Part shown: piece by piece, positions 15,339-46,523 of the stretch
Layout of the letters: the number at the start of each line of letters is the position of its first letter
Numbering within the stretch: position 1 is the stretch's first letter
Assembly: GCF_014287515.2 (NCBI RefSeq)
Contig: NZ_CP092473.1
Coordinates: forward strand, 236,501 to 300,500
Length of the DNA: 64,000 nucleotides
Source of the DNA: Roseburia rectibacter
Lineage (GTDB): Bacteria; Bacillota; Clostridia; Lachnospirales; Lachnospiraceae
Direction of reading: 5' to 3'
Translations under genes and position numbers: made by a program
The notes under the pieces: model-generated
Told to the model about the DNA's origin: nothing
The model's input: the letters and a program-made list of their open reading frames with translations, nothing else
Database searches by the model: none

Positions 15339-16376
15339 CCCGATAAATTGTGGTTTGTTGGGCTATGAGTTCCCCGGCTAAGGGTGGCGTCGCAGTTTTG
15401 TAAGTGGCAAATTGCATCAAGCAGGGACTGTTTTGTTTCCGTTGTCCGAAAATAAGAAACTCTAAGCATGCCTGATTCAGGTTGGGGTGGAGTGACGTGT
15501 GCGTCCTAAATGTGCCGTCCGGGCACATTAGGACTTGTGCTACCGTCCATGGCAGCACAACACTGTGTTACGGACAGGCATCCTAAGAGTTTCTAATTTT
15601 CTTCCAAAGTCACAAAACGAGTCCCGGCTTGATGCGATTCGCCAGCCGCAAGGTTGTGAACCACCCTTAGCTGGGGAACTCATTTTACAACCTTGGGGGT
15701 GCGTAAATTTTTAGTGTTTTGTGTCTGAATCTGATTAAAAAGATATTTCCAAATAACTATATTCAATGGTTTATTATTTGTTTGATAACGTTGGCAAAAA
15801 CTTCAATGTATCCCACTATGCTCATGTTTATTGCCATACACATTTGAAAAAATATTTTGTGTTATTGGTCGGACAATTTACGAAACGATTCTTATAATAT
15901 AATGTAGCATATAAAAATTCTGGGAAGTCATCAGGCTGAATATTAGTGATACAGCACATTAGGATTTTAAGCATATTTCCATTCGTGCAAATGTCAAAAA
16001 TTCACACCCGCGCCCCCGATTTTGAGATGAACCGCCCACCCAAATGGTGTTTCATAACCTGGAGGCTGGCATCTTGCGCAAAGCCGAAGCTGATTTTGTG
16101 ACTTTGGGAGAAAATTAGAAAATCTTAGTGTGTCTGTAGATACACAGTGATGTTCTGCCACGGATGGCAGAACAAGGCAGCATCGAGTCATGGATGACTC
16201 GTTGTTGCCGTTCACGTCACTCCGAAAAAATCTAACTCAGACACACTTAGACTTTTCTTATTTTCGTACAACGGAACCAAAATTAACTCCGGCTTTGCGC
16301 AAGATGCCATTCACAAACCTACGACTCACCATTTGGACGGGCGATTTATTTCATAAACAAACCATCATTTATCGGG
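15339..16376 (-). mobile_element. Composite structured element 1 (units B and C with core)
   Basis: A 1038-base non-coding element. Its ends are imperfect inverted repeats: CCCGATAAATTGTGGTTTG at 15339 and, on the other strand, CCCGATAAATGATGGTTTG ending at 16376. Unit B is 15365-15683 and unit C is 16027-16353; they face each other, and each is itself a long palindrome with two internal hairpins. The core at 15684-16026 is 343 bases and matches, in reverse complement, the cores at 36615-36956 and 45839-46180. No transposase or other convincing gene is inside. It lies between the Rpn remnant and the atp promoter, and no certain target duplication was found. Confidence 0.8.
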
Positions 16377-16466
16377 TTACTTATAATATAGTGCAGATAA
16401 TAGACAAATTTGAAATATTTCTTAACAAAAAGGAAATATTATCTATACAAAATGACGGATATTTGA

Positions 16467-16494
16467 TAGACAAAATGGCGAAAAATGTTATAAT
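16467..16494 (+). promoter_or_regulatory. Sigma-A promoter of the atp operon
   Basis: TAGACA at 16467-16472 and TATAAT at 16489-16494 are 16 bases apart, 30 bases before the first gene of the operon and about 90 bases after composite element 1. A second TATAAT-like block lies right at the element border (~16384). Confidence 0.6.
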
Positions 16495-16523
16495 GAATAA
16501 AGATTGTACTTTATGGAGGAACG

Positions 16524-16775
16524 ATGCAAGTGAGAAAAAACAGAAAGGTGTTTCAGGCACTGACACTGATCCTGCAGTTTGGATTGAATATGATCGTTCC
16601 GATCGTGATGTGCACTCTCTTTGGTACATGGATCGGCAGAAAATATGATATGCTCTGGATCGTGATCCCATTGTTTATCATGGGTGCTCTGGCCGGATTT
16701 ACCAATATTTTTAAAATGGCAAAAAAGATTTACGGACAGGACGGTGGCAGAAATAATGTTACGAAGAATCAATGA
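16524..16775 (+). CDS. atpZ: AtpZ-type ATP synthase accessory protein
   Basis: An 83-residue protein with two membrane helices (~residues 9-36 and 43-63) and the AtpZ/AtpI-like signature FGTWIGRKYDMLW...PLFIMGALAGFTNIFKMAKK. Members head F-type ATP synthase operons and are thought to help c-ring assembly or carry Mg2+/Ca2+. GGAGG lies 5 bases before the ATG. Its 3' end overlaps the next gene by 20 bases. Confidence 0.8.
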   Translation: MQVRKNRKVFQALTLILQFGLNMIVPIVMCTLFGTWIGRKYDMLWIVIPLFIMGALAGFTNIFKMAKKIYGQDGGRNNVTKNQ

Positions 16776-17190
16776 TGCATTGCCGGGACTTGTTTTGGGA
16801 ATTATTGTGTATGGAGTGATCGTGGAATTAGCAGGTGTTTGGTTTGTCACCGACAAAGCCAGGTACACCACGGGACTTCTGATCGGTATCGGTTTAGCGT
16901 GCGGTATGGCAGTCAACATCGCAACTGTATTAAGAGATGCGGTGGAGTTGTATGGAGAGGACAATGCAAAGAAGAAGATCATTGTAAAATCACTGCTCCG
17001 CTATGCTGTTGTTGTGATCGTTTTCTTTATTATGATGGAATGGAATCTCGGAAATCTGATCACTGCGTTTATCGGGGTATTGGGACTTAAGGTATCTGCG
17101 TACTTACAGCCCTTTACACATAGAGTAATACAAAAACTGCAAGGAAGAGGTGATGTATCTTCAGACAGTGAAGATAACAATTTCATATGA
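16756..17190 (+). CDS. atpI: ATP synthase subunit I-like membrane protein
   Basis: A 144-residue protein with four predicted membrane helices (GLVLGIIVYGVIVELAGVWFV; TTGLLIGIGLACGMAVNIATVL; SLLRYAVVVIVFFIMM; NLITAFIGVLGLKVSAYLQPF). Position between atpZ and atpB and its topology fit the divergent AtpI family, which aids c-ring assembly. The start at 16756 (MLRRINDALPG) overlaps atpZ. Sequence similarity within this family is low, so the call is mainly by context. Confidence 0.7.
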   Translation: MLRRINDALPGLVLGIIVYGVIVELAGVWFVTDKARYTTGLLIGIGLACGMAVNIATVLRDAVELYGEDNAKKKIIVKSLLRYAVVVIVFFIMMEWNLGNLITAFIGVLGLKVSAYLQPFTHRVIQKLQGRGDVSSDSEDNNFI

Positions 17191-17203
17191 GGGAGGTGAG
17201 AGA

Positions 17204-17941
17204 GTGAATCATGCAATTCTGATGTCATCCGGAGCCGAAAATATCGACTTTATGATACATGGTATCGTTCAGTACGAGATATTCGGACATAAAGTCTGGA
17301 TCACAACATCGCATGTCTGCATATTGATCGTTATGCTGCTTATGATGGCACTTGCCATTGCAGGAAACCGTGCGATCAAACATGCAAAGGAGATCCCGGA
17401 GGGATTTCAGAATGTTATCGAGCTGATGGTTGAGATGCTTGATAACATGGTAAGCGGCACCATGGGAAAGGTGGCAGCACCGAAGTTTGTCAATTATATC
17501 AGTACCATTTTTATTTTTATTCTTATGAGTAATATATCAGGTCTGTTTGGATTAAGACCACCAACGGCTGACTATGGTACGACACTGGCACTTGGTCTTA
17601 TTACATTCTTCCTGATCCATATCACGCAGTTTAAGAATCTGCCGATCAAGCAGATCTGGACAGATATGTGTTCCCCATTGCCACCATGGCTGCCAATCTG
17701 GTTTCCAATCAATGTGATCAGTGAGATCGCAGTGCCGATTTCATTGTCGCTTCGTCTTTTTGCGAACGTATTGTCAGGAACCGTTATGATGGCATTAGTT
17801 TATGGACTGCTGAGCAAAATAGCAATCATCTGGCCGGCAGCACTCCATGTATACTTTGACTTGTTCTCAGGAGCAATTCAGACGTATGTATTTTGTATGT
17901 TGACAATGACATACATTGGTCAGAACTACGAACAAGAATAA
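17204..17941 (+). CDS. atpB: F-type ATP synthase subunit a
   Basis: A 245-residue protein with five or six membrane helices. The essential Arg lies in the conserved helix segment ISLSLRLFANVLSGTVMMALVYG. Subunit a forms the ion half-channels next to the c-ring. I chose the GTG at 17204 because GGGAGGTGAGA lies just upstream; the ATG 18 bases later is possible. It follows atpI with a 13-base gap. Confidence 0.93.
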   Translation: MNHAILMSSGAENIDFMIHGIVQYEIFGHKVWITTSHVCILIVMLLMMALAIAGNRAIKHAKEIPEGFQNVIELMVEMLDNMVSGTMGKVAAPKFVNYISTIFIFILMSNISGLFGLRPPTADYGTTLALGLITFFLIHITQFKNLPIKQIWTDMCSPLPPWLPIWFPINVISEIAVPISLSLRLFANVLSGTVMMALVYGLLSKIAIIWPAALHVYFDLFSGAIQTYVFCMLTMTYIGQNYEQE

Positions 17942-18220
<279 letters not shown>

Positions 18221-18270
18221 TGAATGGCGCTCCATTCTTGGAATAAAAAAATTGGAAAGGAGGCCGAACC

Positions 18271-25360: not shown

Positions 25361-25654
25361 TTAATTTTCTTTTAGTGAATTGTAAAGATCTTCATCTGAC
25401 CAGTCAGGGTGAGCCTGGCACAGTGAATATACTTTATCAATAAAAGCAGTATCCTTGTTAAGCAGTTTAGCACAGCTTTGTGCAGGAATATTTTCCTGGA
25501 ACATGTTGTGGATGATGTGTAATTGCTCAAGACGTTTGCCCTCCGCTAAACCCTCCGCTAAACCCATCGCTAAGCCATCCTCATGTCCATCCGCATAGCT
25601 GTCCCTGCGTTCCATCTTAATATACTCATCCATATCGAATTCTTCCAATAACAT
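25361..25654 (-). CDS. Intragenic small ORF in Rpn copy 1 (RpnS-like candidate)
   Basis: In the same frame as the full gene, an ATG at 25654 lies 7 bases after GGAGGT. It would give a 97-residue protein starting MLLEEFDMDEYIKMERRDSY and covering the GLAMGLAEGLAEG repeat and the helical tail. In E. coli Rpn genes an internally initiated C-terminal protein neutralises the full-length nuclease. Whether this start is used here is an inference. Confidence 0.5.
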   Translation of the reverse strand: MLLEEFDMDEYIKMERRDSYADGHEDGLAMGLAEGLAEGKRLEQLHIIHNMFQENIPAQSCAKLLNKDTAFIDKVYSLCQAHPDWSDEDLYNSLKEN

Positions 25655-26476
25655 ACCAACGACCTCCGATCTGTGTTTGGTGAGAAAATCCTGCAAAATA
25701 CCGTCCCTGATACATTCCTGTACAGCAGCATCCGCTGCCGGTTCTAATGGAATACCGTTTCTGACCTTCGAAGAAATTCTGCCAATCAGGATAGAATATT
25801 CCTCTAAAGTCCGGCATCGTGCCATTAATTCCTGATTGTGTCCATAATTAATGTTGTAAACCCGTGCAGTGCACTCTAAGCAGGGGCGGGTGCTGATGGG
25901 GCTGGACGTATTTTGCGCAGCGGAGTCAGGGACATCAATATCAGAAACAGGCATATCAGTAGTAACGACTGGCTGTCTGGGTGCAGCATCTGTTGTCAGG
26001 TGGTTTGATTCAGCACATATAAACGCATCTGAAAGATGCAGCTCTATGTAATCTTTATTATCTTCCAACGGTTCAACCCCATTATAAAAAATAACAAACT
26101 GGGGAAACGGCAGTGAAAGCAGTTTTTTCCCGTAAATGTTCAGGTTATTTTGTTTGATATAGCTTTCATACTGTTTGCCGAAATAGATCAGTCCGCGGAT
26201 CGGCATGTTTGGGTTTAAGGTACTCTGGTGTTCATACAGATTTAATGTACCACGGACAATAAATGATACATCATTTTTATATCCGAGATAGATCACGTCA
26301 TCGATCGTGTAAAAGATCAGTTCATCTGCATCGTCATAATCTGTCTGATTCAGGGCATTGTATAACTCCAGCAAAACCGGTTTCTCATTAAAAATTCTGC
26401 GGAATAAGGCATCCCGGTACTTCTTCTGCACAAAAACATGTTTTGTGTGACTGCGTTTTCCTTTGTTTTTCCCCAT
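25361..26476 (-). CDS. Rpn-family PD-(D/E)XK nuclease/transposase-like protein, copy 1
   Basis: A 371-residue protein. The Rpn/PDDEXK_2 core occupies about residues 10-150: RDALFRRIFNEKPVLLELYNAL, then VSFIVRGTLNLYEHQSTLNPNMPIRGLIYFGKQY, where Glu-His-Gln matches the E-x-Q form of the PD-(D/E)XK site. A 25-residue Pro/Thr/Asp-rich linker at ~170-195 is missing from copy 2. Near the C-terminus is a Gly/Ala/Glu repeat (GLAMGLAEGLAEGKR), then a helical WSDEDLYNSL tail. Rpn proteins are DNA endonucleases linked to recombination and, in E. coli, phage defence. An internal start at 25654 is listed separately. GGAGAAAACTAC lies before the ATG. Confidence 0.88.
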   Translation of the reverse strand: MGKNKGKRSHTKHVFVQKKYRDALFRRIFNEKPVLLELYNALNQTDYDDADELIFYTIDDVIYLGYKNDVSFIVRGTLNLYEHQSTLNPNMPIRGLIYFGKQYESYIKQNNLNIYGKKLLSLPFPQFVIFYNGVEPLEDNKDYIELHLSDAFICAESNHLTTDAAPRQPVVTTDMPVSDIDVPDSAAQNTSSPISTRPCLECTARVYNINYGHNQELMARCRTLEEYSILIGRISSKVRNGIPLEPAADAAVQECIRDGILQDFLTKHRSEVVGMLLEEFDMDEYIKMERRDSYADGHEDGLAMGLAEGLAEGKRLEQLHIIHNMFQENIPAQSCAKLLNKDTAFIDKVYSLCQAHPDWSDEDLYNSLKEN

Positions 26477-26665: not shown

Positions 26666-26716
26666 ATCCCTGTAAGTATGCGATAATGGATATATGCTTA
26701 CAGAGATTTTTATAGT
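26666..26716 (-). terminator. Terminator of Rpn copy 2
   Basis: CTGTAAG and CTTACAG arms bracket an AT-rich loop with A and T runs outside, just past the copy 2 stop. The equivalent stem after copy 3 is split by a small insertion element. Confidence 0.65.
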
Positions 26717-27003
26717 GAAATCCATTTTTCTTTTAATGCATGGTAAAGATCTTCATCTGACCAGTCAGGGTGAGCCTGACATAGAGAATACACTTTGCTG
26801 ATAAATGTAACGTCCTTGTCAAGCAACTTAGCACAGCTTTGTGCAGGAATATTTTCCTGGAACATGTTGTGGATGATGTGTAATTGCTCAAGACGTTTGC
26901 CCTCCGCTAAACCCATCGCTAAACCATCCTCATGCCCATCCTCATAGCTGTCCCTGCGTTCCATCTTAATATATTCATCCATATCAAATTCTTCCAATAA
27001 CAT
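26710..27003 (-). CDS. Intragenic small ORF in Rpn copy 2 (RpnS-like candidate)
   Basis: The ATG at 27003 lies 7 bases downstream of GGAGGT and would make a 97-residue C-terminal product. Ribosome binding site, spacing and first 20 residues are the same as in copies 1 and 3. Confidence 0.5.
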   Translation of the reverse strand: MLLEEFDMDEYIKMERRDSYEDGHEDGLAMGLAEGKRLEQLHIIHNMFQENIPAQSCAKLLDKDVTFISKVYSLCQAHPDWSDEDLYHALKEKWISL

Positions 27004-27750
27004 ACCAACGACCTCCGATCTGTGTTTGATAAGAAAATCCTGCAAAATACCGTCCCTGATACATTCCTGTACAGCGGTATCTGCTGCCTGTTCTAATGGA
27101 ATGCCGGTTCTGACCTTCGAAGAGATTCTGCCAATCAGAATGGAATATTCCTCTAAAGTCCGGCATCGCGCCATCAGTTCCTGATTGTGCCCATAATTAA
27201 TATTGTAAACCCGCGCAGTACATTCTAAGCAGGGGCGGGTGCTGATGGGGCTGGATGCAGCATCTGTTGCCAGGTGATTTGATCCGGCATATACAAACGC
27301 ATCCGAAAGATGCAGTTCCATGTAATCTTTATCATTTTCCAACGGTTCAAATCCATTATAAAATATAACAAACTGCGGAAACGGTAATGAAAGCAGCTTT
27401 TTTCCGTAAATGTTCAGGTTATTTTGTTTAATGTAGCTCTCATACTGTTTGCCGAAATAGATCAGTCCGCGGATCGGCATGTTTGGGTTTAAGGTACTCT
27501 GGTGCTCATACAGATTCAGCGTGCCTCGGACGATAAATGACACATCATTTTTATATCCGAGATAGATCACATCATCGATCGTGTAAAAGATCAGTTCATC
27601 TGCATCATCGTAATCTGTCTGATTCAGGGCATTGTACAGTTCCAGCAAAACCGATTTCTCATTAAAAATTCTGCGGAACAAGGCATCCCGGTACTTCTTC
27701 TGCACAAAAACATGTTTTGTGTGACTGCGTTTTCTTTTATTTTTCCCCAT
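26710..27750 (-). CDS. Rpn-family PD-(D/E)XK nuclease/transposase-like protein, copy 2
   Basis: A 346-residue paralogue of copies 1 and 3 with the same N-terminal PDDEXK_2 core (LYEHQST, IRGLIYFGKQYESYIKQ). It lacks the 25-residue linker of the other copies and has a shorter Gly-Ala-Glu tract (GLAMGLAEGKR). It ends KEKWISL, slightly longer than the others. The three genes lie head to tail, each with its own nearly identical upstream region, so they look like tandem duplications rather than one operon. Confidence 0.88.
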   Translation of the reverse strand: MGKNKRKRSHTKHVFVQKKYRDALFRRIFNEKSVLLELYNALNQTDYDDADELIFYTIDDVIYLGYKNDVSFIVRGTLNLYEHQSTLNPNMPIRGLIYFGKQYESYIKQNNLNIYGKKLLSLPFPQFVIFYNGFEPLENDKDYMELHLSDAFVYAGSNHLATDAASSPISTRPCLECTARVYNINYGHNQELMARCRTLEEYSILIGRISSKVRTGIPLEQAADTAVQECIRDGILQDFLIKHRSEVVGMLLEEFDMDEYIKMERRDSYEDGHEDGLAMGLAEGKRLEQLHIIHNMFQENIPAQSCAKLLDKDVTFISKVYSLCQAHPDWSDEDLYHALKEKWISL

Positions 27751-28137: not shown

Positions 28138-28407
28138 TTATTTTTCTTTTAATGCATTGTAAATATCTTCATCTGACCAGTCAGGGTGAGCATGGCACAG
28201 TGAATATATTTTATTGACAAAATCTGTGTTTTCATTAAGCAGGTCGGCGCAGTTTTCGGCAGGGATGCTTTTTTGAAACAGGTTGTGGACGACGTGTAAC
28301 TGCTCAAGACGTTTGCCCTCGGCTAAGCCATCCTCATGTCCATCCTCATAACTGTCCCTGCGTTCCATTTTAATATACTCATCCATATCGAATTCTTCCA
28401 ATAACAT
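28138..28407 (-). CDS. Intragenic small ORF in Rpn copy 3 (RpnS-like candidate)
   Basis: The ATG at 28407 follows GGAGGT by 7 bases and would give an 89-residue C-terminal protein, shorter than the 97-residue versions because of fewer GLAEG repeats. Confidence 0.5.
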   Translation of the reverse strand: MLLEEFDMDEYIKMERRDSYEDGHEDGLAEGKRLEQLHVVHNLFQKSIPAENCADLLNENTDFVNKIYSLCHAHPDWSDEDIYNALKEK

Positions 28408-29229
28408 ACCAACGACCTCCGATCTGTGTTTGATAAGAAAATCCTGCAAAATACCGTCCCTGATACATTCCTGTACAGCAGCATCCGCTGCCGGTTCTAA
28501 TGGAATACCGTTTCTGACCTTCGAAGAAATTCTGCCAATCAGGATAGAATATTCCTCTAAAGTCCGGCATCGTGCCATTAATTCCTGATTGTGTCCATAA
28601 TTAATGTTGTAAACCCGTGCAGTGCACTCTAAGCAGGGGCGGGTGCTGATGGGGCTGGACGTATTTTGCGCAGCGGAGTCAGGGACATCAATATCAGAAA
28701 CAGGCATATCAGTAGTAACGACTGGCTGTCTGGGTGCAGCATCTGTTGTCAGGTGGTTTGATTCAGCACATATAAACGCATCTGAAAGATGCAGCTCTAT
28801 GTAATCTTTATTATCTTCCAACGGTTCAACCCCATTATAAAAAATAACAAATTGCGGAAACGGCAGCGAAAGCAGCTTTTTCCCGTAAATGTTCAGGTTA
28901 TTTTGTTTAATGTAGCTCTCATACTGTTTGCCGAAATAGATCAGTCCGCGGATCGGCATGTTGGGGTTTAAGGTACTCTGGTGCTCATACAGATTCAGCG
29001 TGCCTCGGACGATGAATGATACGTCATTTTTATATCCGAGATAGATCACGTCATCGATCGTGTAAAAAATCAGTTCATCTGCATCATCGTAATCTGTCTG
29101 ATTCAGGGCATTGTATAACTCCAGCAAAACTGATTTCTCATTAAAAATCCTGCGGAACAAGGCATCCCGGTACTTCTTCTGCACAAAAACATGTTTTGTG
29201 TGACTGCGTTTTCCTTTGTTTTTCCCCAT
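28138..29229 (-). CDS. Rpn-family PD-(D/E)XK nuclease/transposase-like protein, copy 3
   Basis: A 363-residue paralogue, nearly identical to copy 1 in the core and including the 25-residue Pro/Thr/Asp-rich linker. It has the shortest Gly-Ala-Glu tract (HEDGLAEGKR) and a more divergent C-terminal tail (VVHNLFQKSIPAENCADLLNENTDF). Variation between copies is thus concentrated in the C-terminal part. The 3' terminator stem is interrupted by a MITE-like insertion. Confidence 0.88.
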   Translation of the reverse strand: MGKNKGKRSHTKHVFVQKKYRDALFRRIFNEKSVLLELYNALNQTDYDDADELIFYTIDDVIYLGYKNDVSFIVRGTLNLYEHQSTLNPNMPIRGLIYFGKQYESYIKQNNLNIYGKKLLSLPFPQFVIFYNGVEPLEDNKDYIELHLSDAFICAESNHLTTDAAPRQPVVTTDMPVSDIDVPDSAAQNTSSPISTRPCLECTARVYNINYGHNQELMARCRTLEEYSILIGRISSKVRNGIPLEPAADAAVQECIRDGILQDFLIKHRSEVVGMLLEEFDMDEYIKMERRDSYEDGHEDGLAEGKRLEQLHVVHNLFQKSIPAENCADLLNENTDFVNKIYSLCHAHPDWSDEDIYNALKEK

Positions 29230-32245: not shown

Positions 32246-34183
32246 ATGAAAATCAGGGATTTACTTGCCGTAGAGAGTATTGACTTAAATGGCAAAGTTA
32301 ATGGAAAGAACGAAACCCTTGATGCAATGGTTGCATTGATGGCTAAGAGCGGAAAGATCAACGATGTTGAGAAGTACCGCAAGGGCGTATACGCCAGAGA
32401 GGAAGAAGGAACAACCGGAATTGGTGAGGGAATCGCCATTCCACATTGCAAGTCAGATGCAGTCAGCAAACCTGGTCTTGCAGCAATGGTCATCAAAGAC
32501 GGGGTGGATTTTGATGCATTAGATGGAGAAAAGGTCAGCCTGATCTTCCTGATCGCAGCACCAAATACGGAAGACAACGTACATCTGGATGTACTTAGCA
32601 AGTTATCTGTTCTTCTGATGGATGAGAATTTTACAAGCGGACTTCGCAATGCAAAGACGGTTGAGGAATTTTTAAGTGTGATCGACCGCGCGGAAGCTGA
32701 GAAAGATGCCGAAGAAGAGAAAAAGAACAGCGCAGATACAAAGAATGCGGCAGAGGAGAAAAACACAGAGAATGGAAAGCTGATCCTCGCTGTAACCGGA
32801 TGCCCGAACGGAATCGCACATACTTATATGGCGGCAGAAAATATTGAGAAAAAAGCGAAAGAGCTTGGATGCCGTGTGAAAGTTGAGACAAGAGGTTCCG
32901 GCGGTGCCAAAAATGTATTGACAAAAGCTGAAATTGCAGAGGCTGCATGTATTATTGTTGCAGCGGATACACAGGTTCCGATGGATCGTTTTGCAGGCAG
33001 ACCTGTGATCCAGTGTAAGGTTTCTGATGGAATCAGTAAGGCGGAAGAATTGTTAGACAGAGCGTTAAACGGCAATGTTCCACTGTATCAGGCGAAGGGA
33101 AGCGGTCAGGCAGCAGACAGTGAGGAAGAATCTGACAGCGTTGGACACCAGATTTACAAACACCTGATGAATGGAGTTTCCCATATGTTACCGTTCGTTA
33201 TCGGCGGTGGTATCCTGATTGCGATCGCATTTCTGATCGATGGTTTTGCAGTTGACTTAAACAGCCTTCCATTTGATGAGCGTTCAAACTTTGGTACGAT
33301 CACACCGATGGCGGCAATGTTTAAATCGATCGGTGGTGTTGCATTCGGATTTATGCTTCCGATCTTAGCCGGATTTATCGCAATGAGTATTGCAGATCGT
33401 CCTGGTCTTGCGGTCGGTTTTGTCGGCGGAGCAATCGCGGCAAACGGAACATCCGGATTCCTTGGAGCTCTCGTTGCAGGTTTTGTTGCAGGCTATCTGG
33501 TACGTCTGTTAAAGAAACTGTTTGAGAAACTGCCGGAAGGCTTAGAGGGTATCAAGCCAATGCTTCTCTATCCGGTAATCGGTATCTTTTTGATCGGAGT
33601 GATCATGACTTATGTGGTAGAGCCTCCGATCGGAGCATTAAACGTTATGATCAACAACGGATTAAACAGCATGAATGGTGCAAAGGCAATCCTGCTTGGC
33701 GCACTGCTCGGCGGAATGATGTCCGTAGATATGGGTGGCCCGGTAAACAAAGCAGCATATGTATTTGGTACCGCATCTATCGCAGCAGGCAATTACAATA
33801 TCATGGCAGCTGTTATGGTCGGTGGTATGGTTCCACCGCTTGCAATCGCACTTGCAACCATGTTCTTTAAAAACAAATTTACCGAAGAAGAGAGAAAAGC
33901 AGGACCGACAAACATTGTTATGGGACTTTCCTTTATCTCAGAGGGAGCAATCCCGTTTGCAGCATCGGATCCATTGCGTGTGCTGCCGTCCTGTATCATT
34001 GGTTCCGCAGTTGCAGGAGCATTATCCATGGCATTTAACTGTACATTAATGGCACCACATGGTGGAATCTTCGTATTCTTAACCGTAGGCCATCCACTGT
34101 TATATCTTGTATCCCTGGCAGTTGGTTCTGTTGTAGGATGCGTAATCCTTGGACTTTTAAAGAAGGATGTATCAAAAAGATAG
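32246..34183 (+). CDS. fruA: Fructose PTS transporter, EIIABC
   Basis: A 645-residue three-domain permease. EIIA is at ~1-145 with the phospho-His in GIAIPHCKS; EIIB at ~170-270 with the phospho-Cys in VTGCPNGIAHTYMAAENIE; EIIC at ~295-640 with about ten membrane helices (GGGILIAIAFLIDG, GFVGGAIAANGTSGFLGALVAGFVAGYLV). It imports fructose as fructose 1-phosphate. The order A-B-C is common in Firmicutes. The dedicated HPr and EI genes follow. Confidence 0.95.
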   Translation: MKIRDLLAVESIDLNGKVNGKNETLDAMVALMAKSGKINDVEKYRKGVYAREEEGTTGIGEGIAIPHCKSDAVSKPGLAAMVIKDGVDFDALDGEKVSLIFLIAAPNTEDNVHLDVLSKLSVLLMDENFTSGLRNAKTVEEFLSVIDRAEAEKDAEEEKKNSADTKNAAEEKNTENGKLILAVTGCPNGIAHTYMAAENIEKKAKELGCRVKVETRGSGGAKNVLTKAEIAEAACIIVAADTQVPMDRFAGRPVIQCKVSDGISKAEELLDRALNGNVPLYQAKGSGQAADSEEESDSVGHQIYKHLMNGVSHMLPFVIGGGILIAIAFLIDGFAVDLNSLPFDERSNFGTITPMAAMFKSIGGVAFGFMLPILAGFIAMSIADRPGLAVGFVGGAIAANGTSGFLGALVAGFVAGYLVRLLKKLFEKLPEGLEGIKPMLLYPVIGIFLIGVIMTYVVEPPIGALNVMINNGLNSMNGAKAILLGALLGGMMSVDMGGPVNKAAYVFGTASIAAGNYNIMAAVMVGGMVPPLAIALATMFFKNKFTEEERKAGPTNIVMGLSFISEGAIPFAASDPLRVLPSCIIGSAVAGALSMAFNCTLMAPHGGIFVFLTVGHPLLYLVSLAVGSVVGCVILGLLKKDVSKR

Positions 34184-34290
34184 GAAACGGAAAAGGTAAT
34201 TAAAATCGCAGGCTTTATGTTGCAACAATATAGAGCCTGTGAATATGTAATCATAAAACAATGTGTTATGTACAAAGAAAGGAGAAAATC

Positions 34291-34548
34291 ATGAAAGAAT
34301 TTAAATACGTGATCACAGACAAAGGGGGAATCCATGCAAGACCGGCAGGAGCACTTGTAAAGGAAGCAGCCGCATTTCCATGCAGCATTACCATTGCAAA
34401 AGATGGAAAAGCAGCAGATGCAAAACGTATTTTTGGAGTTATGGGACTTGGTGTAAAATGCGGCGAGGAGATCACAGTCTGCACCGATGGAGAGAATGAA
34501 GAGGCAGCAAGTGCTGCAATCGAGGCATTTTTGAAAGCAAATCTGTAA
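34291..34548 (+). CDS. ptsH: HPr-like phosphocarrier, Ser46 position is Arg
   Basis: An 85-residue HPr. The phospho-His motif GGIHARPAG is intact, so it can accept phosphate from EI. The regulatory helix, normally KSIMGVMSLG, reads KRIFGVMGLG: the Ser46 position phosphorylated by HPr kinase is Arg. Gram-positive HPr uses P-Ser46 as CcpA corepressor, so this copy should be blind to that control. It sits between fruA and ptsI, suggesting a fructose-dedicated HPr. I chose ATG 34291 because AAAGGAG is 7 bases upstream. Confidence 0.92.
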   Translation: MKEFKYVITDKGGIHARPAGALVKEAAAFPCSITIAKDGKAADAKRIFGVMGLGVKCGEEITVCTDGENEEAASAAIEAFLKANL

Positions 34549-34594
34549 AAATTGATAAAAACAGAAATAAAAATCTAAAATGGAGGTAACGGGC

Positions 34595-36220
34595 ATGGAA
34601 CTGCACGGAAAAAGTGTATTCGGCGGAATTGCCATGGGCAGACTGTCTGTCTATCATAAGACGGATAACGCAGTAAAACGAACAAAGATAACGGATATAG
34701 AAGCAGAAAAAAAACGTTTTGAGGATGCAAAAGAAGAAGCCAAAAGGCAGCTTGGTGTTTTCTATGAAAAAGCAGTCAGGGAAGTCGGTGAAGTCAATGC
34801 GGCAATTTTTGAGATGCACCAGATGATGCTGGATGATCTCGACTATGTAGAGTCGATCACAAACATGATCGAAACCCAGCAGGTCAATGCAGAATTTGCA
34901 GTTGCTTCCACCGGAGATAATTTTGCGCAGATGTTTGCTGCGATGGATGATGATTATATGAGAGAACGTGCGGCGGATGTCAAAGATATCTCCAATCGCG
35001 TGATCTCTATTTTACAGGGAAACGGCGATGCAGGCTTAAGCGGTGATGAACCGTTTATCCTTTTAGCGGATGATCTTGCACCGAGTGAGACTGTGCAGCT
35101 TGATAAATCAAAAGTACTTGCTTTTGTAACACGTCACGGTTCCACCAATTCCCACACGGCGATCTTAGCGAGAACCATGAATATTCCGGCATTGATCGGA
35201 GTTGATTTTCCGGAAGAGGGTGTGGACGGACAGTTCGGTATCGTGGATGGATTTGATGCAAAGTTTTTCGTAGAACCGGATGAGGATACGAAAGCGGAAT
35301 ACCGGAAGTTAAAAGAAGAAAATGAGCAGAAGAAACGTCTGCTTCAGGAATTAAAGGGTAAGGAAAATATCACAAGGGATGGAACGAAGATCAATCTTTA
35401 TGCCAATATCGGGGGTGTTTCCGATGTGGCAAATGTACTTGCCAATGATGCGGGTGGAATCGGACTGTTCCGGAGTGAGTTCCTTTATTTAGAGTCGGAG
35501 GATTACCCGACAGAAGAAGCACAGTTTGCAGCATATAAGACAGTTGCGGAAAATATGGCGGGTAAAAAAGTTATTATCCGTACACTTGATATCGGAGCAG
35601 ATAAACAGGTCGGTTATTTTGGCCTTGAGAAAGAAGAAAACCCGGCAATGGGTTACCGTGCGATCCGGATCTGCCTCGACCGCACTGAAATTTTTAAGAC
35701 ACAGCTTCGGGCAATCTACCGTGCCAGCTATTATGGAACGATTGCGATCATGTTCCCGATGATCATTTCCGTAAATGAGGTGAAAAAGATCAAAGAAATC
35801 ATTGCGGAAGTGAAAGCGGGACTTGATGCCGACGGTATTCCGTATAAGGATGTGGAACTCGGTATTATGATCGAGACACCGGCGGCAGTTATGATCAGTG
35901 ATCTTTTAGCGAAAGAGGTTGATTTCTTTTCGATCGGGACAAACGATCTGACACAATATACACTTGCAATCGACAGGCAGAATCCGAAACTGGATAATAT
36001 TTATGATTCACACCATGAAGCAGTCCTTCGGATGTTAAAAATGGTTGTGGATAACGGACATAAGGAAGGATGCTGGGTTGGCATCTGCGGTGAGCTTGGC
36101 GCGGATGAAACGCTCACAGAGACATTCCTTCGGATGGGATTTGACGAACTTTCCGTATCGCCGTCTATGATACTTCGGATCAGGGATAAGATACGAAATA
36201 CAGATCTGTCAGAGAAATAA
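34595..36220 (+). CDS. ptsI: PTS enzyme I (PEP-protein phosphotransferase)
   Basis: A 541-residue EI, close to the usual ~570. The phospho-His motif is RHGSTNSHTAILARTMNIPAL, the PEP-binding segments are GIGLFRSEFLYL and IMIETPAAVMISDLLAKEVDFFSIGTNDLTQYTLAIDR, and the catalytic Cys region is GCWVGICGELGAD. It transfers phosphate from PEP to HPr. ATG 34595 has GGAGG 8 bases upstream. No ordinary terminator follows; composite element 2 starts within 20 bases. Confidence 0.95.
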   Translation: MELHGKSVFGGIAMGRLSVYHKTDNAVKRTKITDIEAEKKRFEDAKEEAKRQLGVFYEKAVREVGEVNAAIFEMHQMMLDDLDYVESITNMIETQQVNAEFAVASTGDNFAQMFAAMDDDYMRERAADVKDISNRVISILQGNGDAGLSGDEPFILLADDLAPSETVQLDKSKVLAFVTRHGSTNSHTAILARTMNIPALIGVDFPEEGVDGQFGIVDGFDAKFFVEPDEDTKAEYRKLKEENEQKKRLLQELKGKENITRDGTKINLYANIGGVSDVANVLANDAGGIGLFRSEFLYLESEDYPTEEAQFAAYKTVAENMAGKKVIIRTLDIGADKQVGYFGLEKEENPAMGYRAIRICLDRTEIFKTQLRAIYRASYYGTIAIMFPMIISVNEVKKIKEIIAEVKAGLDADGIPYKDVELGIMIETPAAVMISDLLAKEVDFFSIGTNDLTQYTLAIDRQNPKLDNIYDSHHEAVLRMLKMVVDNGHKEGCWVGICGELGADETLTETFLRMGFDELSVSPSMILRIRDKIRNTDLSEK

Positions 36221-36237
36221 AAATGCATCAGGGAAAT

Positions 36238-37302
36238 GGGCATATGCTGGTTTGTTTATGAAATAAATCGCCCGCTCAAATGGTGAGTCGTAGGTTTGTG
36301 AATGGCATCTTGCGCAAAGCCGGAGTTAATTTTGGTTCCGTTGTACGAAAATAAGAAAAGTCTAAGTGTGTCTGAGTTAGATTTTTTCGGAGTGACGTGA
36401 ACGGCAACAACGAGTCATCCATGACTCGATGCTGCCTTGTTCTGCCATCCGTGGCAGAACATCACTGTGTATCTACAGACACACAATCTCAATCTGACCA
36501 TTATCAGATTGAGATAGATTTTCTAATTTTCTCCCAAAGTCACAAAATCAGCTTCGGCTTTGCGCAAGATGCCAGCCTCCAGGTTATGAAACACCATTTG
36601 GGTGGGCGGTTCATCTCAAAAATGGGGCGTAGGTGTGGATTTTTGAGATTCGCACGAATGGAAATATGCTTAAAATCCTAATGTGCTGTATCACTAATAT
36701 TCAGCCTGATGACTTCCCAGAATTTTTATATGCTACATTGTATTACATGAATTATTTCGTAAAATGCCAGACAAAATAACACAGAATATTTTTTTCAAAT
36801 GTGTATGGCAATAAACATAGGCATAACGGGATACATTGAGGTTTTTCCAGTATTATCAAACCAATAATAATCTATTAAACATAGTTATTTGGAAATATTT
36901 TTTTATCAGATTCAGACACAAAACACTAAAAATTTACGCACTTCCAAGGGTGTAAAATGAGTTCCCCAGCGAAGGGTGGTTCACAACCTTGTGGCTGGCA
37001 AATCGCATCAAGCCGGAACTTGTTTTGTGACTTTGGGAGAAAATTAGGCAATCTTAGTCTGCCTGTCCGTAACACAGTGTTGTGCTGCCACGGACGGCAG
37101 CACAAGTCTTAATGCCCCCGGACGGGGCGTTTAAGACGCACACGTCACTCCGAGAAACATTAAATCAGGCTGACTTAGACTTGCCTTATTTTCGGACAAT
37201 GGAACAAAACAGTCCCGGCTTGATGCAATTTGCCAATCGAAAACCCCCGGAACCACCCTACACAGAGGAACTCAACTCACACCCAAACCAGCATTTGCCG
37301 GG
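36238..37302 (+). mobile_element. Composite structured element 2 (units D and E with core)
   Basis: About 1065 bases, non-coding. The ends are degraded inverted repeats (left GCATATGCTGGTTTGTTT; right, on the other strand, CCCGGCAAATGCTGGTTTG). Unit D is 36258-36614 and unit E 36957-37275, facing each other; the core 36615-36956 is 342 bases and closely matches the cores of elements 1 and 3. The extra length relative to element 1 comes mostly from a 30-base hairpin inside unit D (36486-36515). It starts within 20 bases of the ptsI stop and may act as its terminator. Boundaries are good to a few bases. Confidence 0.78.
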
Positions 37303-37407
37303 CAGATCATATGCAGTAATTATGGTATAATATGATTATGACCTGGGGATTAACTATGTAAGACAGAGAATAATCAGGTATAAAAAACAGGAACAGGAGA
37401 CACGCAC

Positions 37408-38682
37408 ATGAGCAATTACTTATTGATCAAACAGGGAACGATCCACAATGCCATAGAGGAAGAGCCATTTGTGGCAGATATTCTGGTGGAGAATGGAAAA
37501 ATAAAAAAGATCGCGCCGGTTTTAGAAGGAAAAATCATCAATGATGCGGAAGTGATCGATGCGATGGGAATCGATATTTATCCGGGGTTTGTGGATGCGC
37601 ACTGCCACATGGGATTAGATGGATATGCGACCGGATTTGCCGGGGAGGATTACAACGAATTAGGGGATCCTGTGACACCGCAGCTTTCGGCGGTAGATGC
37701 AGTTAACCCGCAGGATGAGACTTTCCAGATGGCACGCGAAGGCGGTGTGACCTGTGTCTGTACCGGACCGGGCAGTTCGAATGTAATTGGCGGAACATTC
37801 TGCGCTATCAAGACTTACGGAAAACGTGTGGATGACATGCTGGTCAAAGAGAAAACCGCTATGAAGATCGCTTTTGGTGAGAATCCTAAAAACTGTTATA
37901 AGGAAAAAGGTGTTTATTCGAGGATGTCTGTTGCCGCGAAGCTGCGTGAAGCACTGACAAAGGCAAAAATATATGACAGACAGTTACAGGCGGCAGGCTG
38001 CCCGGAAGGCTGGAATGAACTTCAGATGGAACATACATGGGAACAGGCGCAGGAACAAGTGATGGATAATTCACAGAAAACGGACGCGGATATGCAGGTA
38101 GATTTTTCAAAGATGCCGGCATATGATGCAAAAATGGAGGCGCTTCTTCCTGTTATCCGCGGTGAGATGCCGTTAAAAGCCCATGCGCACCGCGCAGATG
38201 ATATCTATACGGCGATCCGTATTGCAAAAGAATTTCATGTGGATCTTAGGATCGATCACACAACGGATGGTGCCCTGATCGCCGATGATCTTGCAAAAGA
38301 AGGATATCCGGTTGCAGTGGGGCCGTCTTTTGGACATGCCACCAAATATGAACTGCGCCATAAAGGATTCCATACACCGGCTGCACTTGCAAAAGCAGGC
38401 TGCCAGGTTTCGATCATTACAGATTCGCCGGTGATCGAGGAACGTTATCTGGCACTCTGTGCAGGACGTGCGGTGTTTAACGGACTCAGTGAGTTTGATG
38501 CATTAAAAGCAATTACGATCAATGCTGCAAAGCATATCGGAATCGAAGACCGCGTCGGAAGCATTGAGGAGGGAAAGGATGCGGATTTTGTCCTGACAAG
38601 GGAAAATCCGTTTGCTGTGGATACTCATATTTTATATACGATCATTGATGGAAATGTGGTGTATCAAGGAGAAAGCGAATAA
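37408..38682 (+). CDS. Amidohydrolase family protein (imidazolonepropionase-like)
   Basis: A 424-residue metal-dependent amidohydrolase. The N-terminal composite domain is followed by the metal motif FVDAHCHMGL; later metal ligands appear in KAHAHRADDI and RIDHTTDG. The C-terminal EEGKDADFVLTRENPF segment is typical of the family. The order of conserved blocks resembles COG1228 imidazolonepropionase-like enzymes of unknown substrate. Its neighbours are cytosine deaminase, a PucR regulator and a transporter, so a cyclic amide or nucleobase derivative is a reasonable guess. CAGGAG lies before the ATG, and a TATAAT box sits near 37326. Confidence 0.8.
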   Translation: MSNYLLIKQGTIHNAIEEEPFVADILVENGKIKKIAPVLEGKIINDAEVIDAMGIDIYPGFVDAHCHMGLDGYATGFAGEDYNELGDPVTPQLSAVDAVNPQDETFQMAREGGVTCVCTGPGSSNVIGGTFCAIKTYGKRVDDMLVKEKTAMKIAFGENPKNCYKEKGVYSRMSVAAKLREALTKAKIYDRQLQAAGCPEGWNELQMEHTWEQAQEQVMDNSQKTDADMQVDFSKMPAYDAKMEALLPVIRGEMPLKAHAHRADDIYTAIRIAKEFHVDLRIDHTTDGALIADDLAKEGYPVAVGPSFGHATKYELRHKGFHTPAALAKAGCQVSIITDSPVIEERYLALCAGRAVFNGLSEFDALKAITINAAKHIGIEDRVGSIEEGKDADFVLTRENPFAVDTHILYTIIDGNVVYQGESE

Positions 38683-43835: not shown

Positions 43836-44714
43836 ATGACACGAAGAAAATATTGGGTGAAAAAAATATTGCCGTTTCTCACATGTGCTGGTCTTTTGTT
43901 GACAAGTCCGGTGTTTGCCGAGGCTGCAACACAGGCAGAGCGCAGTGCCTATCAGGCGGTGTTTGATGCTGATTACTACCGCAGTGCCTATCCGGATGTG
44001 GCGGCAGCATTTGGAAATAATAAAACGGCACTCTTTAATCATTTTGTAAATTATGGATTAAAGGAAGGGAGAAGCTGTTCTGCAGATTTTAATCCACAGG
44101 CATATCGTGCAAAGTATACAGATCTGCAGCAGGCATTTGATAATGATATGGCAGCATACTGTCGCCATTATGTGTCCTATGGAAAAGCAGAGGGCAGAGA
44201 TGGAGGCGGAAATGTACCTGCCGGTACAGTTACATCAAATACGGCTGCATCCGGAACTGTTGTAACACAGGGAAACGTGATCGGTACCTGTACGACGGAA
44301 TATGATGCAACTGTTCCGAGAGCTGTCAACGTAGAACTGGCAGCAGCTCGCATCAATGGTGTTGTGGTACAGCCGGGACAGTCATTTTCATTCAGTTCCA
44401 CGATTTTACCGCGTACTGCGGCAAATGGATATGTTGTAGCACCGATCTATATCAGTGGTACGGTTGGTACCGGAATCGGCGGAGGTGTGTGCCAGGTATC
44501 ATCGACACTTTATGCTGCAATGCGGTATGCAGGACTTCCGGCAACACAGCGGTATCCACATTCCCTGCCGGTTACATATCTTCCGGAGGGATATGATGCT
44601 GCGATAGCAGGAACGAGCAAAGACCTTAAGTTTACCAATACGTTTTCACAGCCGCTTCTGATCCAGGCATCTGCTGCAAACGGCGTGGTGACAGTGACAT
44701 TGACATTACAATAG
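43836..44714 (+). CDS. Secreted VanW-domain protein with two N-terminal repeats
   Basis: A 292-residue protein. Residues 1-31 form a signal peptide (KKILPFLTCAGLLLTSPVFAEAA). Two ~40-residue repeats follow, FDADYYRSAYPDVAAAFGNNKTALFNHFVNYGLKEGR and FNPQAYRAKYTDLQQAFDNDMAAYCRHYVSYGKAEGR, then a Thr/Val-rich linker. A VanW domain fills ~150-285 (GQSFSFSSTILPRTAANGY, GTGIGGGVCQVSSTLYAA, YLPEGYDAAIA). VanW proteins are cell-envelope associated and their function is unknown. GGAGG lies before the ATG. Confidence 0.85.
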   Translation: MTRRKYWVKKILPFLTCAGLLLTSPVFAEAATQAERSAYQAVFDADYYRSAYPDVAAAFGNNKTALFNHFVNYGLKEGRSCSADFNPQAYRAKYTDLQQAFDNDMAAYCRHYVSYGKAEGRDGGGNVPAGTVTSNTAASGTVVTQGNVIGTCTTEYDATVPRAVNVELAAARINGVVVQPGQSFSFSSTILPRTAANGYVVAPIYISGTVGTGIGGGVCQVSSTLYAAMRYAGLPATQRYPHSLPVTYLPEGYDAAIAGTSKDLKFTNTFSQPLLIQASAANGVVTVTLTLQ

Positions 44715-44738
44715 GAAAGAGAATACATAAGAAAACAT

Positions 44739-45452
44739 ATGCGTATTTTAGTAGTAAATGATGATGGAATTAAAGCACCTGGTATCCATCGTCTTGCAAA
44801 GATGGCTGCGGGACTTGGTGAAGTGTGGGTGGTTGCGCCGGATGCGCAGTGCAGCGCAATGTCACAGCGGATCACTGTGCGTGGAGATTTAGAAGTAAAA
44901 CCATATGATTTTCCGGTTGTGGGAGTAACGGCATATAGTGTGGGCGGAACACCGGCAGACTGTGTGAAAGTGGCATTGGGCTGTCTGATGGAAGAAAAAC
45001 CGGATGTTGTATTTTCCGGCATCAATGCAGGTTATAATGTCGGACGTGATATTTTATATTCAGGTACGATCGGGGCAGCAATGGAGGCTCTCTGCGGCGG
45101 AGTCCCTGCGATTGCATTTTCGGTTGCAGAGGAAGATGAGTGCGAGGTTTTAGATGCGTATTTAGAATCGGTCGCAAAAGAGCTGATTGCTAAAAAGCTG
45201 CCGGAAAATGAGATCTGGAATGTAAATTTTCCGGGATGCACATTAGCAGAATACAAAGGAATCCTGTGGAATCGTATCCCGGATCAGAACCAGTATTACA
45301 GGGATAACTATAAGCGGATGGACAGACCGGATGGAAGCATTATCTTTTCTGCCGCAGGACTCCCGGAAACAGAAGCAGCGGATGGAACAGATGCCGGAGC
45401 GGTTCTTTCGAATTACATATCAGTTGGAACGATTAAGAACATGATGATTTAA
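44739..45452 (+). CDS. surE: 5'/3'-nucleotidase SurE
   Basis: A 237-residue SurE protein. MRILVVNDDGIKAPGI carries the metal-binding Asp pair; VVAPDAQCSAMSQRITV, GGTPADCVKVAL and FSGINAGYNVGRDILYSGTIGAAMEA are the remaining conserved blocks. SurE dephosphorylates nucleoside monophosphates and short polyphosphate. It follows the VanW gene by 24 bases. Composite element 3 begins 39 bases downstream. Confidence 0.95.
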   Translation: MRILVVNDDGIKAPGIHRLAKMAAGLGEVWVVAPDAQCSAMSQRITVRGDLEVKPYDFPVVGVTAYSVGGTPADCVKVALGCLMEEKPDVVFSGINAGYNVGRDILYSGTIGAAMEALCGGVPAIAFSVAEEDECEVLDAYLESVAKELIAKKLPENEIWNVNFPGCTLAEYKGILWNRIPDQNQYYRDNYKRMDRPDGSIIFSAAGLPETEAADGTDAGAVLSNYISVGTIKNMMI

Positions 45453-45490
45453 AAAGATGCTGTTTGTTGCAGGCATTAAAATACGAGTAT

Positions 45491-46523
45491 CCCGCCAAAT
45501 GATGGTTTGTTTATGAAATAAATCGCCCGTCCAAATGGTGTTTCATAGGCTTGTGAATGGCATCTTGCGCAAAGCCGAAGTAATTTTTGTTCCGTTGTAC
45601 GAAAATAAGAAAAGTCTAAGTGTGTCTGAGTTAGATTTTCGCGAAGTGACGTGAACGGCAACAACGAGTCATCCATGACTCGATGCTGCCTTGTTCTGCC
45701 ATCCATGGCAGAACATCACTGTGTAACTACAGACACACTAAGATTTTCTAATTTTCTCCCAAAGTCACAAAATCAGCTTCGGCTTTGCGCAAGATGCCAG
45801 CTGTCAGGTTGTGAACACCATTTGAGTGGGCGGTTCATCTCAAAAATGGGGCGTAGGTATGGATTTTTGAGATTCGCACGAATGGAAATATGCTTAAAAT
45901 CCTAATGTGCTGTATCACTAATATTCAGCCTGATGACTTCCCAGAATTTTTATATGCTACATTATATTATAAGAATCGTTTCGTAAATTGTCCGATCAAT
46001 AACACAAAATATTTTTTCAAATGTGTATGGCAATAAACATGAGCATAGTTGGATACATTGAAGTTTTTGCCAACGTTATCAAACAAATAATAAACCATTG
46101 AATATAGTTATTTGGAAATATCTTTTTAATCAGATTCAGACACAAAACACTAAAAATTTACGCACCCCCAAGGTTGTAAAATGAGTTCCCCAGCTAAGGG
46201 TGGTTCACAACCTTGCGGCTGGCAAATCGCATCAAGCCGAGACTTGTTTTGTGACTTTGGAAGAAAATTAGAAACTCTTAGGATGCCTGTCCGTAACACA
46301 GTGTTGTGCTGCCATGGACGGCAGCACAAGTCCTAATGTGCCCGGACGGCACATTTAGGACGCACACGTCACTCCGCCCCAACCTGAATCAGGCATGCTT
46401 AGAGTTTCTTATTTTCGGACAACGGAAACAAAACAGTCCCGGCTTGATGCAATTTGCCACTCACAAAACTGCGACGCCACCCTTAGCCGGGGAACTCATA
46501 GCCCAACAAACCATCATGTGTAG
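45491..46523 (+). mobile_element. Composite structured element 3 (units F and G with core)
   Basis: About 1033 bases, non-coding. The left end is CCCGCCAAATGATGGTTTGT at 45491; the right end is degraded (CAAACCATCATGTGTAGGA near 46508-46523). Unit F is 45513-45838 and unit G 46181-46499, facing each other; the core 45839-46180 is 342 bases and nearly identical to the cores of elements 1 (reverse complement) and 2. It fills the gap between surE and the LacI-family gene. Confidence 0.8.

What the first reader, a model, noticed from the sequence alone, without database searches (positions are those of the whole stretch)
15339..46523. A ~1.03-1.07 kb composite non-coding element present three times
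Seen directly: 15339-16376, 36238-37302 and 45491-46523 share the order short terminal inverted repeat, ~320-350 base palindromic unit, 342-343 base core, second palindromic unit in inverted orientation, terminal repeat. The cores have almost the same length in all three copies and are highly similar; copy 1 lies in the opposite orientation. No transposase or convincing gene lies inside. Each sits between genes, directly after ptsI and surE and before the atp operon. Neither the whole architecture nor the core matches an IS, MITE, retron or riboswitch known to me. Inference: a non-autonomous mobile element whose mobility or function depends on large folded arms.
Basis: partly seen in the sequence, partly recalled or inferred. 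Interest (0 to 1): 0.8.

Follow-up and report, generated by a model that had tools for sequence, protein, structure and literature searches.

The report
Composite palindromic repeat carrying TwoAYGGAY RNAs
A one-kilobase repeat found three times between genes of a gut Roseburia relative is built from two copies of a poorly understood RNA motif facing away from each other around a spacer, and it looks like a small transposon-like element that spreads with the help of machinery not yet found.

Summary
In detail: three 1.03-1.07 kb copies share one architecture and a short terminal inverted repeat. The claim that nothing matches a known family fails for the arms: each palindromic unit is a full-length hit to Rfam RF01731, TwoAYGGAY, two per copy, diverging, plus a solo unit at 7439-7607. 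Part of the spacer is a decayed relative of another palindromic repeat. The nearest held genome carries six more composites and lacks the element at all three window sites. Left units and right units form two separate clades, so the composite was assembled once and then spread whole (weak support for the left clade). No target-site duplication and no transposase were found in what was searched. Best reading: a non-autonomous, MITE/BIME-like element built of TwoAYGGAY palindromes. In Roseburia, close TwoAYGGAY pairs are nearly always head-to-head (18 divergent, 2 tandem, 0 convergent among listed hits; hand count). I did not find that described in print. An RNA function is not excluded: the cores keep promoter-like sites facing both units.

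The parts
15339..16376 (-). Composite element c1 (unit B left, unit A right; inverted relative to c2 and c3), upstream of the ATP synthase genes
   Evidence: alignment; units
36238..37302 (+). Composite element c2, 17 bases after ptsI
   Evidence: ptsI Pfam
45491..46523 (+). Composite element c3, 38 bases after surE
   Evidence: surE Pfam
15441..15608 (-). TwoAYGGAY (RF01731) in unit B of c1, 123.7 bits
16103..16272 (+). TwoAYGGAY in unit A of c1, 142.9 bits
36340..36503 (-). TwoAYGGAY in unit A of c2, 106.8 bits; this unit carries an extra mini-palindrome at 36486-36515 that is terminator-like on the + strand
37032..37200 (+). TwoAYGGAY in unit B of c2, 117.3 bits
45594..45763 (-). TwoAYGGAY in unit A of c3, 140.3 bits
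46256..46423 (+). TwoAYGGAY in unit B of c3, 127.8 bits
15339..15359 (.). Terminal inverted repeat of c1, paired with 16356-16376 (21 nt, 90% complementary)
16356..16376 (.). Terminal inverted repeat of c1, right end
36239..36261 (.). Terminal inverted repeat of c2, paired with 37277-37299 (23 nt, 83%)
37277..37299 (.). Terminal inverted repeat of c2, right end
45496..45511 (.). Terminal inverted repeat of c3, paired with 46505-46520 (16 nt, 94%)
46505..46520 (.). Terminal inverted repeat of c3, right end
45847..46180 (+). Core of c3 between the two palindromic units
45977..46118 (+). Part of the c3 core aligning to a 166-bp CTAG-flanked palindrome of other Roseburia genomes (score 48.5; 0 of 1000 shuffles)
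36755..36895 (+). Same part in the c2 core (score 44.0)
15746..15887 (-). Same part in the c1 core (score 48.5)
7368..7680 (-). Solo TwoAYGGAY palindrome (RF01731 at 7439-7607, 127.4 bits) between dnaB and a MerR-type gene
15021..15314 (-). C-terminal remnant of a multicopy gene that ends about 25 bases from the left end of c1
   Evidence: tblastn

Best explanation
The three copies are members of a non-autonomous, palindromic mobile element that works like a MITE or a BIME (inferred). Its building block is a palindrome of about 320-370 bases whose centre is the TwoAYGGAY structure (shown). Such palindromes are dispersed between genes in many Roseburia genomes, most often close behind an upstream gene (shown for a sample). 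The composite arose once, when two units of different TwoAYGGAY lineages came to lie head-to-head around a spacer that also holds a decayed second palindromic repeat (lineages and repeat are shown, the order of events is inferred). The block then acted as one unit with its own terminal inverted repeat and reached new sites in at least two species (copies and missing sites are shown; transposition is inferred). A transposase supplied in trans, not yet identified, must recognise the paired ends (inferred). The lack of a target-site duplication and the matching of the bases next to the stable end within each copy suggest that the two ends pair with each other during transfer or replication, as in single-strand or hairpin-dependent transposition (weak inference).
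For: Seven RF01731 hits of 106.8-142.9 bits against a cut-off of 43. 9 composites in window plus G001 align with sharp ends. G001 has 24 hits = 6 divergent pairs and 12 solos. Flanking genes of all three window sites align to G001 without the element: 181, 310 and 21 bases lie between the aligned blocks where the window has 1515, 1157 and 1107. A and B units each monophyletic in 9 of 9 composites (support 0.92 for B, only 0.23 for A). c2 and G001 copy 3423985 share a diagnostic insertion in unit A although the c2 site lacks the element in G001. In G001 all 9 matches to the composite end with 0-1 mismatch lie on composites. Within-copy identity of the 5 bases outside the anchor is 0.69 against 0.48 shuffled, 0 of 500 shuffles reach it; the next six 5-base windows outwards show no excess. 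Structure: 67 consensus pairs in 31 units, 32 with pair-keeping changes on both sides.
Against: No target-site duplication in 9 composites (best mean 0.46; 164 of 200 shuffles as good). No transposase with matching ends in G001 by pattern, nor in 20 stretches around ends of the commonest solo type (10 ORFs from 8 of them have ordinary or no clear Pfam matches). No site is base-exact empty: at c1 G001 also lacks the 448 bases to its left, at c2 it has other DNA including a hairpin, at c3 about 70 further bases differ, so loss or replacement in G001 is not excluded. Copies are mosaic (c2 core nearest G001 3742385 at 94.0% over 333 columns, its unit A nearest c1 at 96.9%), so recombination between copies also moves sequence. 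Of six G017 units looked at in its close relative G015, one is shared, one is shared but interrupted, one is a shortened remnant, two lie in a 7-kb stretch missing from G015, one has no aligned flanks: no clean case.
Confidence: 0.58

Rival explanations
1. RNA first: the core is a two-way promoter for two divergent TwoAYGGAY RNAs that bind CsrA through GGA-bearing loops, and copies are kept for dose. This works like the CsrB/RsmZ sponges.
For: Published prediction that TwoAYGGAY loops match the CsrA-binding motif (PMC4333381, passages read). Conserved G-A mismatches in the inner stem (positions 5 and 7: 38 of 48 and 39 of 50 units). Promoter-like sites are 8, 5 and 7 in the three regions against 3.4, 3.4 and 3.7 in shuffles (sd about 2), and at matching core places all three copies have one facing unit B (TTGASA-16-TATGCT) and one facing unit A (TTGCCA-16/17-TATTYT). 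CsrA is found in 58 of 62 genomes and in 24 of the 25 with RF01731 (the exception G023 is 68% complete).
Against: RF01731 is in only 25 of the 62, so CsrA presence does not predict it. The cores are 90-97% identical, so shared promoter-like words may be descent alone. Most other head-to-head pairs have short or unrelated spacers. No fixed strand relative to neighbouring genes (7 same, 12 opposite among co-directional solos). The second loop of the composite B units lacks the A of AYGGAY. No G-U excess on the model strand.
Confidence: 0.24
2. Passive repeats: 3' end palindromes that act as transcription terminators or mRNA stabilisers, multiplied by recombination and gene conversion, not by a transposase.
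For: In 20 of 26 co-directional sites the element is nearer the upstream gene's 3' end (hand tally; sign test 0.009). One G015 site keeps only a short hairpin followed by T's where G017 has a full unit. Mosaic identities.
Against: Terminator-like sites are 1, 2 and 0 in the three regions against 1.2, 1.2 and 1.0 in shuffles. Sharp shared terminal repeats and copies at unrelated loci need an insertion mechanism.
Confidence: 0.12
3. Each composite assembles on the spot because solo units insert head-to-head next to earlier ones, so the composite is not a mobile unit itself.
For: Head-to-head pairs occur in G005, G015, G017, G022, G045, G059 and G068; where read they have short or unrelated spacers and no clear shared outer repeat.
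Against: In G001 and the window the pairs share outer repeat, core and separate A and B clades.
Confidence: 0.06

Closest known systems
TwoAYGGAY RNA motif (Rfam RF01731)
   Same: The centre of every palindromic unit is a full-length, high-scoring match; two hairpins with GGA loops on a long stem with conserved G-A mismatches.
   Different: Described as a single RNA candidate (PMC2864571 table: probably RNA, probably not cis-regulatory; passage read). Here it is the centre of a longer dispersed palindrome with varying arms, and two are joined in one repeated element.
MITEs (miniature inverted-repeat transposable elements)
   Same: Short, no gene, terminal inverted repeats, several intergenic copies.
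   Different: No target-site duplication and no cognate transposase found; contains two complete structured units.
REP doublets / BIMEs / REPINs with RAYT transposases
   Same: Pairs of palindromic units in inverted orientation behaving as one repeat (BIME/REPIN features recalled).
   Different: Units are about 320-370 bases, not 20-40 (REP size from the abstract of PMC3733652 in the listing); no RAYT was looked for.
Composite transposon (two IS around a cargo)
   Same: Two inverted units flank a spacer.
   Different: The flanking units carry no transposase.
166-bp CTAG-flanked palindrome of other Roseburia genomes (unnamed; L037, with relatives in L036 and L034)
   Same: Aligns over about 142 bases of the core.
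   Different: In the composite it is decayed and no longer palindromic beyond shuffles.

Membership tests
Rfam RF01731 TwoAYGGAY | Covariance model score above the gathering cut-off of 43 bits | tested here: met
   7 hits, 106.8-142.9 bits
Rfam RF01731 TwoAYGGAY | Two hairpins with AYGGAY terminal loops | tested here: inconclusive
   Both loops present in A units; in composite B units the first loop is AYGGAY, the second lacks its A (alignment)
Rfam RF01731 TwoAYGGAY | Conserved paired structure | tested here: met
   32 of 67 consensus pairs show pair-keeping double changes in 31 units
MITE | Terminal inverted repeats at both ends, shared by copies | tested here: met
MITE | Target-site duplication | tested here: not met
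   No signal in 9 composites against shuffled pairings
MITE | No coding capacity | tested here: met
   Two ORFs of 100 aa or more overlap c1 and c3, none c2; no Pfam match in those two
MITE | Autonomous relative with the same ends | tested here: inconclusive
   None in G001 by end pattern (pairs judged by eye); 20 stretches in three genomes around another end type negative, four of them cut short by contig ends; not searched in all genomes
MITE | Presence/absence at orthologous sites | tested here: met
   Absent from all three orthologous sites in G001, not base-exact
BIME/REPIN | Repeat unit made of inverted palindromic elements | tested here: met
   18 of 20 close pairs divergent, 2 tandem (hand count of listed hits)
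BIME/REPIN | REP units of 20-40 bases with a conserved tetranucleotide | tested here: not met
   Units are about 320-370 bases in the composites; the tetranucleotide was not searched
BIME/REPIN | RAYT (Y1 tyrosine) transposase in the genome | not tested
Composite transposon | Flanking insertion sequences with transposase | tested here: not met
   No transposase in the units
CsrA-binding sRNA | Transcribed RNA that binds CsrA | not testable with these tools
   CsrA gene present in 58 of 62 genomes; binding and transcription unknown

The most novel reading that the evidence does not exclude
TwoAYGGAY is not primarily a regulatory RNA but the signature of a new class of mobile palindromes that propagate as head-to-head doublets and rebuild matching outer arms at each new site, so that terminal bases are copied from one side to the other (an inverted rather than a direct target duplication). 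Hints: divergent geometry recurs in seven further genomes (two of them close relatives); the bases next to the stable end match within a copy beyond shuffles; the 20-base outer arm of the window's solo unit has one match, with 2 mismatches, in the 10-kb matching stretch of G001, right at the site without the unit, though a deletion in G001 explains that equally well.
Probability: 0.13. Interest if true: 0.78.

Novelty: new variant of a known kind. Interest (0 to 1): 0.48.

Why it matters
TwoAYGGAY has been listed since 2010 without a shown function. That it sits at the centre of dispersed palindromes, often in head-to-head pairs, and that one such pair became a 1-kb element with its own ends, gives two testable routes: find the enzyme that moves it, or find the RNA. 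In at least one draft genome (G024) several contigs end inside the repeat, so it also explains some assembly breaks in a common human gut genus.

Tried and rejected
Known RNA family in the core: none (best chance hit E 0.88). Phage origin: no match in phage records and no exact match of one 31-base stretch in viral contigs. Plasmids: only units on a Roseburia sp. 831b replicon. That 31-base stretch in named genomes: 0; the tool says near records may be left out.

Autonomous partner: pattern search for the composite end in G001 with up to 3 mismatches: 69 matches against 36 for the reversed control; the nine with 0-1 mismatch are composite ends, one of four with 2 mismatches is, and two composite ends have 3. 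Apart from the composites I saw no inward-facing pair closer than about 6 kb (by eye). Pattern search for the commonest solo end in 9 genomes: matches in 7. 20 stretches around such ends read: short palindromes, ordinary genes, four contigs ending in or near the repeat; no IS with those ends. 10 ORFs from 8 of these stretches: no transposase family.

Strand test by wobble pairs: if the model strand were selected as RNA, G-U should exceed A-C mismatches. It did not: 118 G-U against 237 A-C in 51 units; in 50 units outer arms 92 against 212, inner stem 25 against 22. Copies are related and positions shared, so this is not a clean test; it gives no support for RNA selection on the outer arms.

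Whole composite as an inverted duplication of one unit: rejected, A and B group with different solo lineages. Clean empty sites in the close pair G015/G017: two 20-kb stretches tested, none clean. A third stretch was fetched but not searched.

Changed on checking: an earlier impression that no promoter-like site is kept in the core was wrong, so the odds of the RNA rival were raised from 0.20 to 0.24 and those of the best reading lowered from 0.62 to 0.58; 'the 12 best end matches' in G001 was mended as above.

Rows dropped: searches used 51 and 50 units: 31 from window and G001 (L075 left out) and 20 of 35 from other genomes in hand (left out: L007, L010, L018, L024 and 11 units of G045, G047 and G055); the tree used the 50. 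One search used 39 sites chosen from the loci in hand, with mechanically called ORFs (the right neighbour of c1 is probably miscalled). Hit lists used for the pair count were incomplete for G017 (47 of 49), G045 (13 of 15), G047 (15 of 22), G055 (11 of 14), G024 (12 of 14), G002 (5 of 7) and G069 (1 of 2), and positions in G042, G052 and G053 were not listed. Composite copies are related, so 18 of 20 overstates independence; collapsing relatives by judgement leaves about 9 of 10 (p 3e-5 for 25% expected).
Full report
What is there. The window holds three copies of a 1.03-1.07 kb element at 15339-16376, 36238-37302 and 45491-46523. In one orientation they align from end to end and similarity stops at a terminal inverted repeat whose stable part reads AAATGATGGTTTGT. 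Each holds two large palindromes and a core of about 325-336 bases. As single-stranded RNA the third copy folds into two large hairpins and a core with weaker structure.

What the arms are. Rfam identifies all six arms, and one lone palindrome at 7439-7607, as RF01731, TwoAYGGAY, full length and far above the cut-off. In each composite the two model strands point outwards. The lone unit folds 12 standard deviations below shuffles. In 31 units from the window and G001 the consensus structure has 67 pairs, 32 with pair-keeping changes on both sides, and G-A mismatches are conserved in the inner stem. The published notes seen on this family are short: a table entry 'probably RNA, probably not cis-regulatory', human gut, gamma-Proteobacteria and Clostridiales (PMC2864571, passage); a prediction that it binds CsrA (PMC4333381, passages); extra covarying pairs in Rfam 15 (PMC11701678, passage); two loops of unlike stability (PMC11661157, passages). 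The searches did not show a paper that describes it as a repeat, as a mobile element or in pairs; most hits were seen as listings only, and subscription papers are mostly not held.

What the core is. About 142 bases of the core align to a 166-bp palindrome with CTAG at both ends found in another genome of the genus (L037 in G066; relatives in G019 and G011), score 48.5 against a shuffle maximum of 20.3; the two halves taken apart also exceed all 1000 shuffles. In the composite this piece is no longer palindromic beyond shuffles. So the composite is made of three palindromic repeats, the middle one decayed. The cores also carry promoter-like matches at matching places, one facing each unit in all three copies; these are consensus matches in related sequences, not evidence of transcription.

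Where it occurs. The nearest held genome G001 has 24 RF01731 hits: six divergent pairs and 12 solos. The six pairs are composites with the same ends; in four the core is shortened. In none of the other 61 genomes searched did a match cover more than about a quarter of the composite. RF01731 itself is found in 25 of 62 genomes of the genus, with stricter filters. The genus is Roseburia: contig C2 of G047 has the length and match position of a Roseburia sp. 831b replicon, and the three closest ptsI loci in named genomes are called Roseburia. From memory the length of G001 resembles R. intestinalis; this was not checked.

Did it move? The genes on both sides of c1, c2 and c3 are syntenic in G001, but the element is missing: 181, 310 and 21 bases lie between the aligned blocks where the window has 1515, 1157 and 1107. 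None of the three is a base-exact empty site. The 9 left units form one clade and the 9 right units another, the left allied to G001 solos of one end type and the right to other solos (support for the left clade is only 0.23). Hence the composite was probably made once and then spread. c2 and one G001 copy share a diagnostic insertion in the left unit although they lie at different loci, and segment identities are mosaic. There is no target-site duplication. The five bases just outside the stable end match between the two ends of the same copy more than between copies (0.69 against 0.48, 0 of 500 shuffles; six further windows outwards show nothing), so the ends are kept paired or are copied from each other.

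Who moves it? Not found. In G001 the nine near-exact matches to the composite end are all composite ends, and no other inward-facing pair at up to 3 mismatches lies closer than about 6 kb (by eye). A second end type, ATTCGGGTGTCAAAAGG, is common to solo units of G001, G005, G023, G024, G045 and G047; 20 stretches around copies of it, in G001, G024 and G047, four of them cut short by contig ends, showed no insertion sequence with those ends.

Geometry. Among listed hits, neighbouring units less than 1 kb apart are divergent in 18 cases (window 3, G001 6, G005 2, G015 1, G017 2, G022 1, G045 1, G059 1, G068 1), tandem in 2 (G017) and convergent in none; this is a hand count, with the gaps in the lists told under Tried and rejected. 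Outside G001 and the window the pairs read have short or unrelated spacers and no clear shared outer repeat (the G022 row of that call was read in the wrong orientation and is not used). Direct repeats may be lost by recombination, but that does not explain the absence of convergent pairs.

Place between genes. Of 39 sites examined, 26 lie between co-directional genes, and in 20 of these the element is nearer the upstream gene's 3' end (hand tally; 0.009 by sign test). The strand relative to those genes is not fixed. c1 abuts the remnant of a gene that has three intact relatives in the window.

Reading. The simplest account is a non-autonomous mobile element assembled from TwoAYGGAY palindromes, working like a MITE or BIME but a member of neither by the features tested. 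The RNA reading is not excluded: CsrA is present in 58 of 62 genomes and the cores keep outward promoter-like sites, but the motif is not in step with CsrA (25 of 62), and the wobble-pair test gave no support for selection on the model strand in the outer arms.

Noticed in passing
window 25361-26476, 26710-27750, 28138-29229 (-) and 15021-15314 (-): Three intact copies (84-92% identical) of a 346-371 aa protein and a C-terminal remnant ending about 25 bases from c1. No Pfam or NCBIfam family reaches its cut-off; of 120 listed relatives (2130 in all) one is named 'predicted transposase YdaD'. From memory it resembles the Rpn/PD-(D/E)XK group; a possible lead for the missing enzyme, but no link to the element's ends was seen.
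   Followed up: partly
L037:1492-1657, L036 and L034: A 166-bp palindrome with CTAG at both ends, with relatives in G019 and G011, not matched in Rfam nor in plasmid records.
   Followed up: partly
window 33080-36234 and 37392-38588: Identity to G001 is 99.1% up to 36234, four bases before c2, and 88.8% beyond the element: the element sits at a step in identity, as if at a recombination breakpoint. Similar steps lie near 8756-9390 and 17954.
   Followed up: no
window 9363-10412: A DUF4143 protein matching PADLOC candidate PDC-S01 only from profile position 108 on; it appears shortened at its N-terminal side relative to G001.
   Followed up: no
window 53127-53335: T-box leader (RF00230, 106.1 bits) on the + strand.
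   Followed up: no
window 7368-7680 against L168: The outer arm of the solo unit is found once, without the unit, at the matching place in G001, where it joins a fragment of another gene; insertion with inverted copying of the target and deletion in G001 fit equally.
   Followed up: partly
L001 about 2277-2292 and L002 about 2276-2607: G017 has about 330 bases where G015 has about 14, with no RF01731 hit listed there; nature unknown.
   Followed up: no
L194 about 450-510: Very short palindrome with the solo end motif and no TwoAYGGAY centre, apparently an internally deleted unit.
   Followed up: no
L010 and L018 (G006): RF01731 hits inside much longer palindromes (688 and 659 bases by self-alignment) than elsewhere in the genus.
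   Followed up: no
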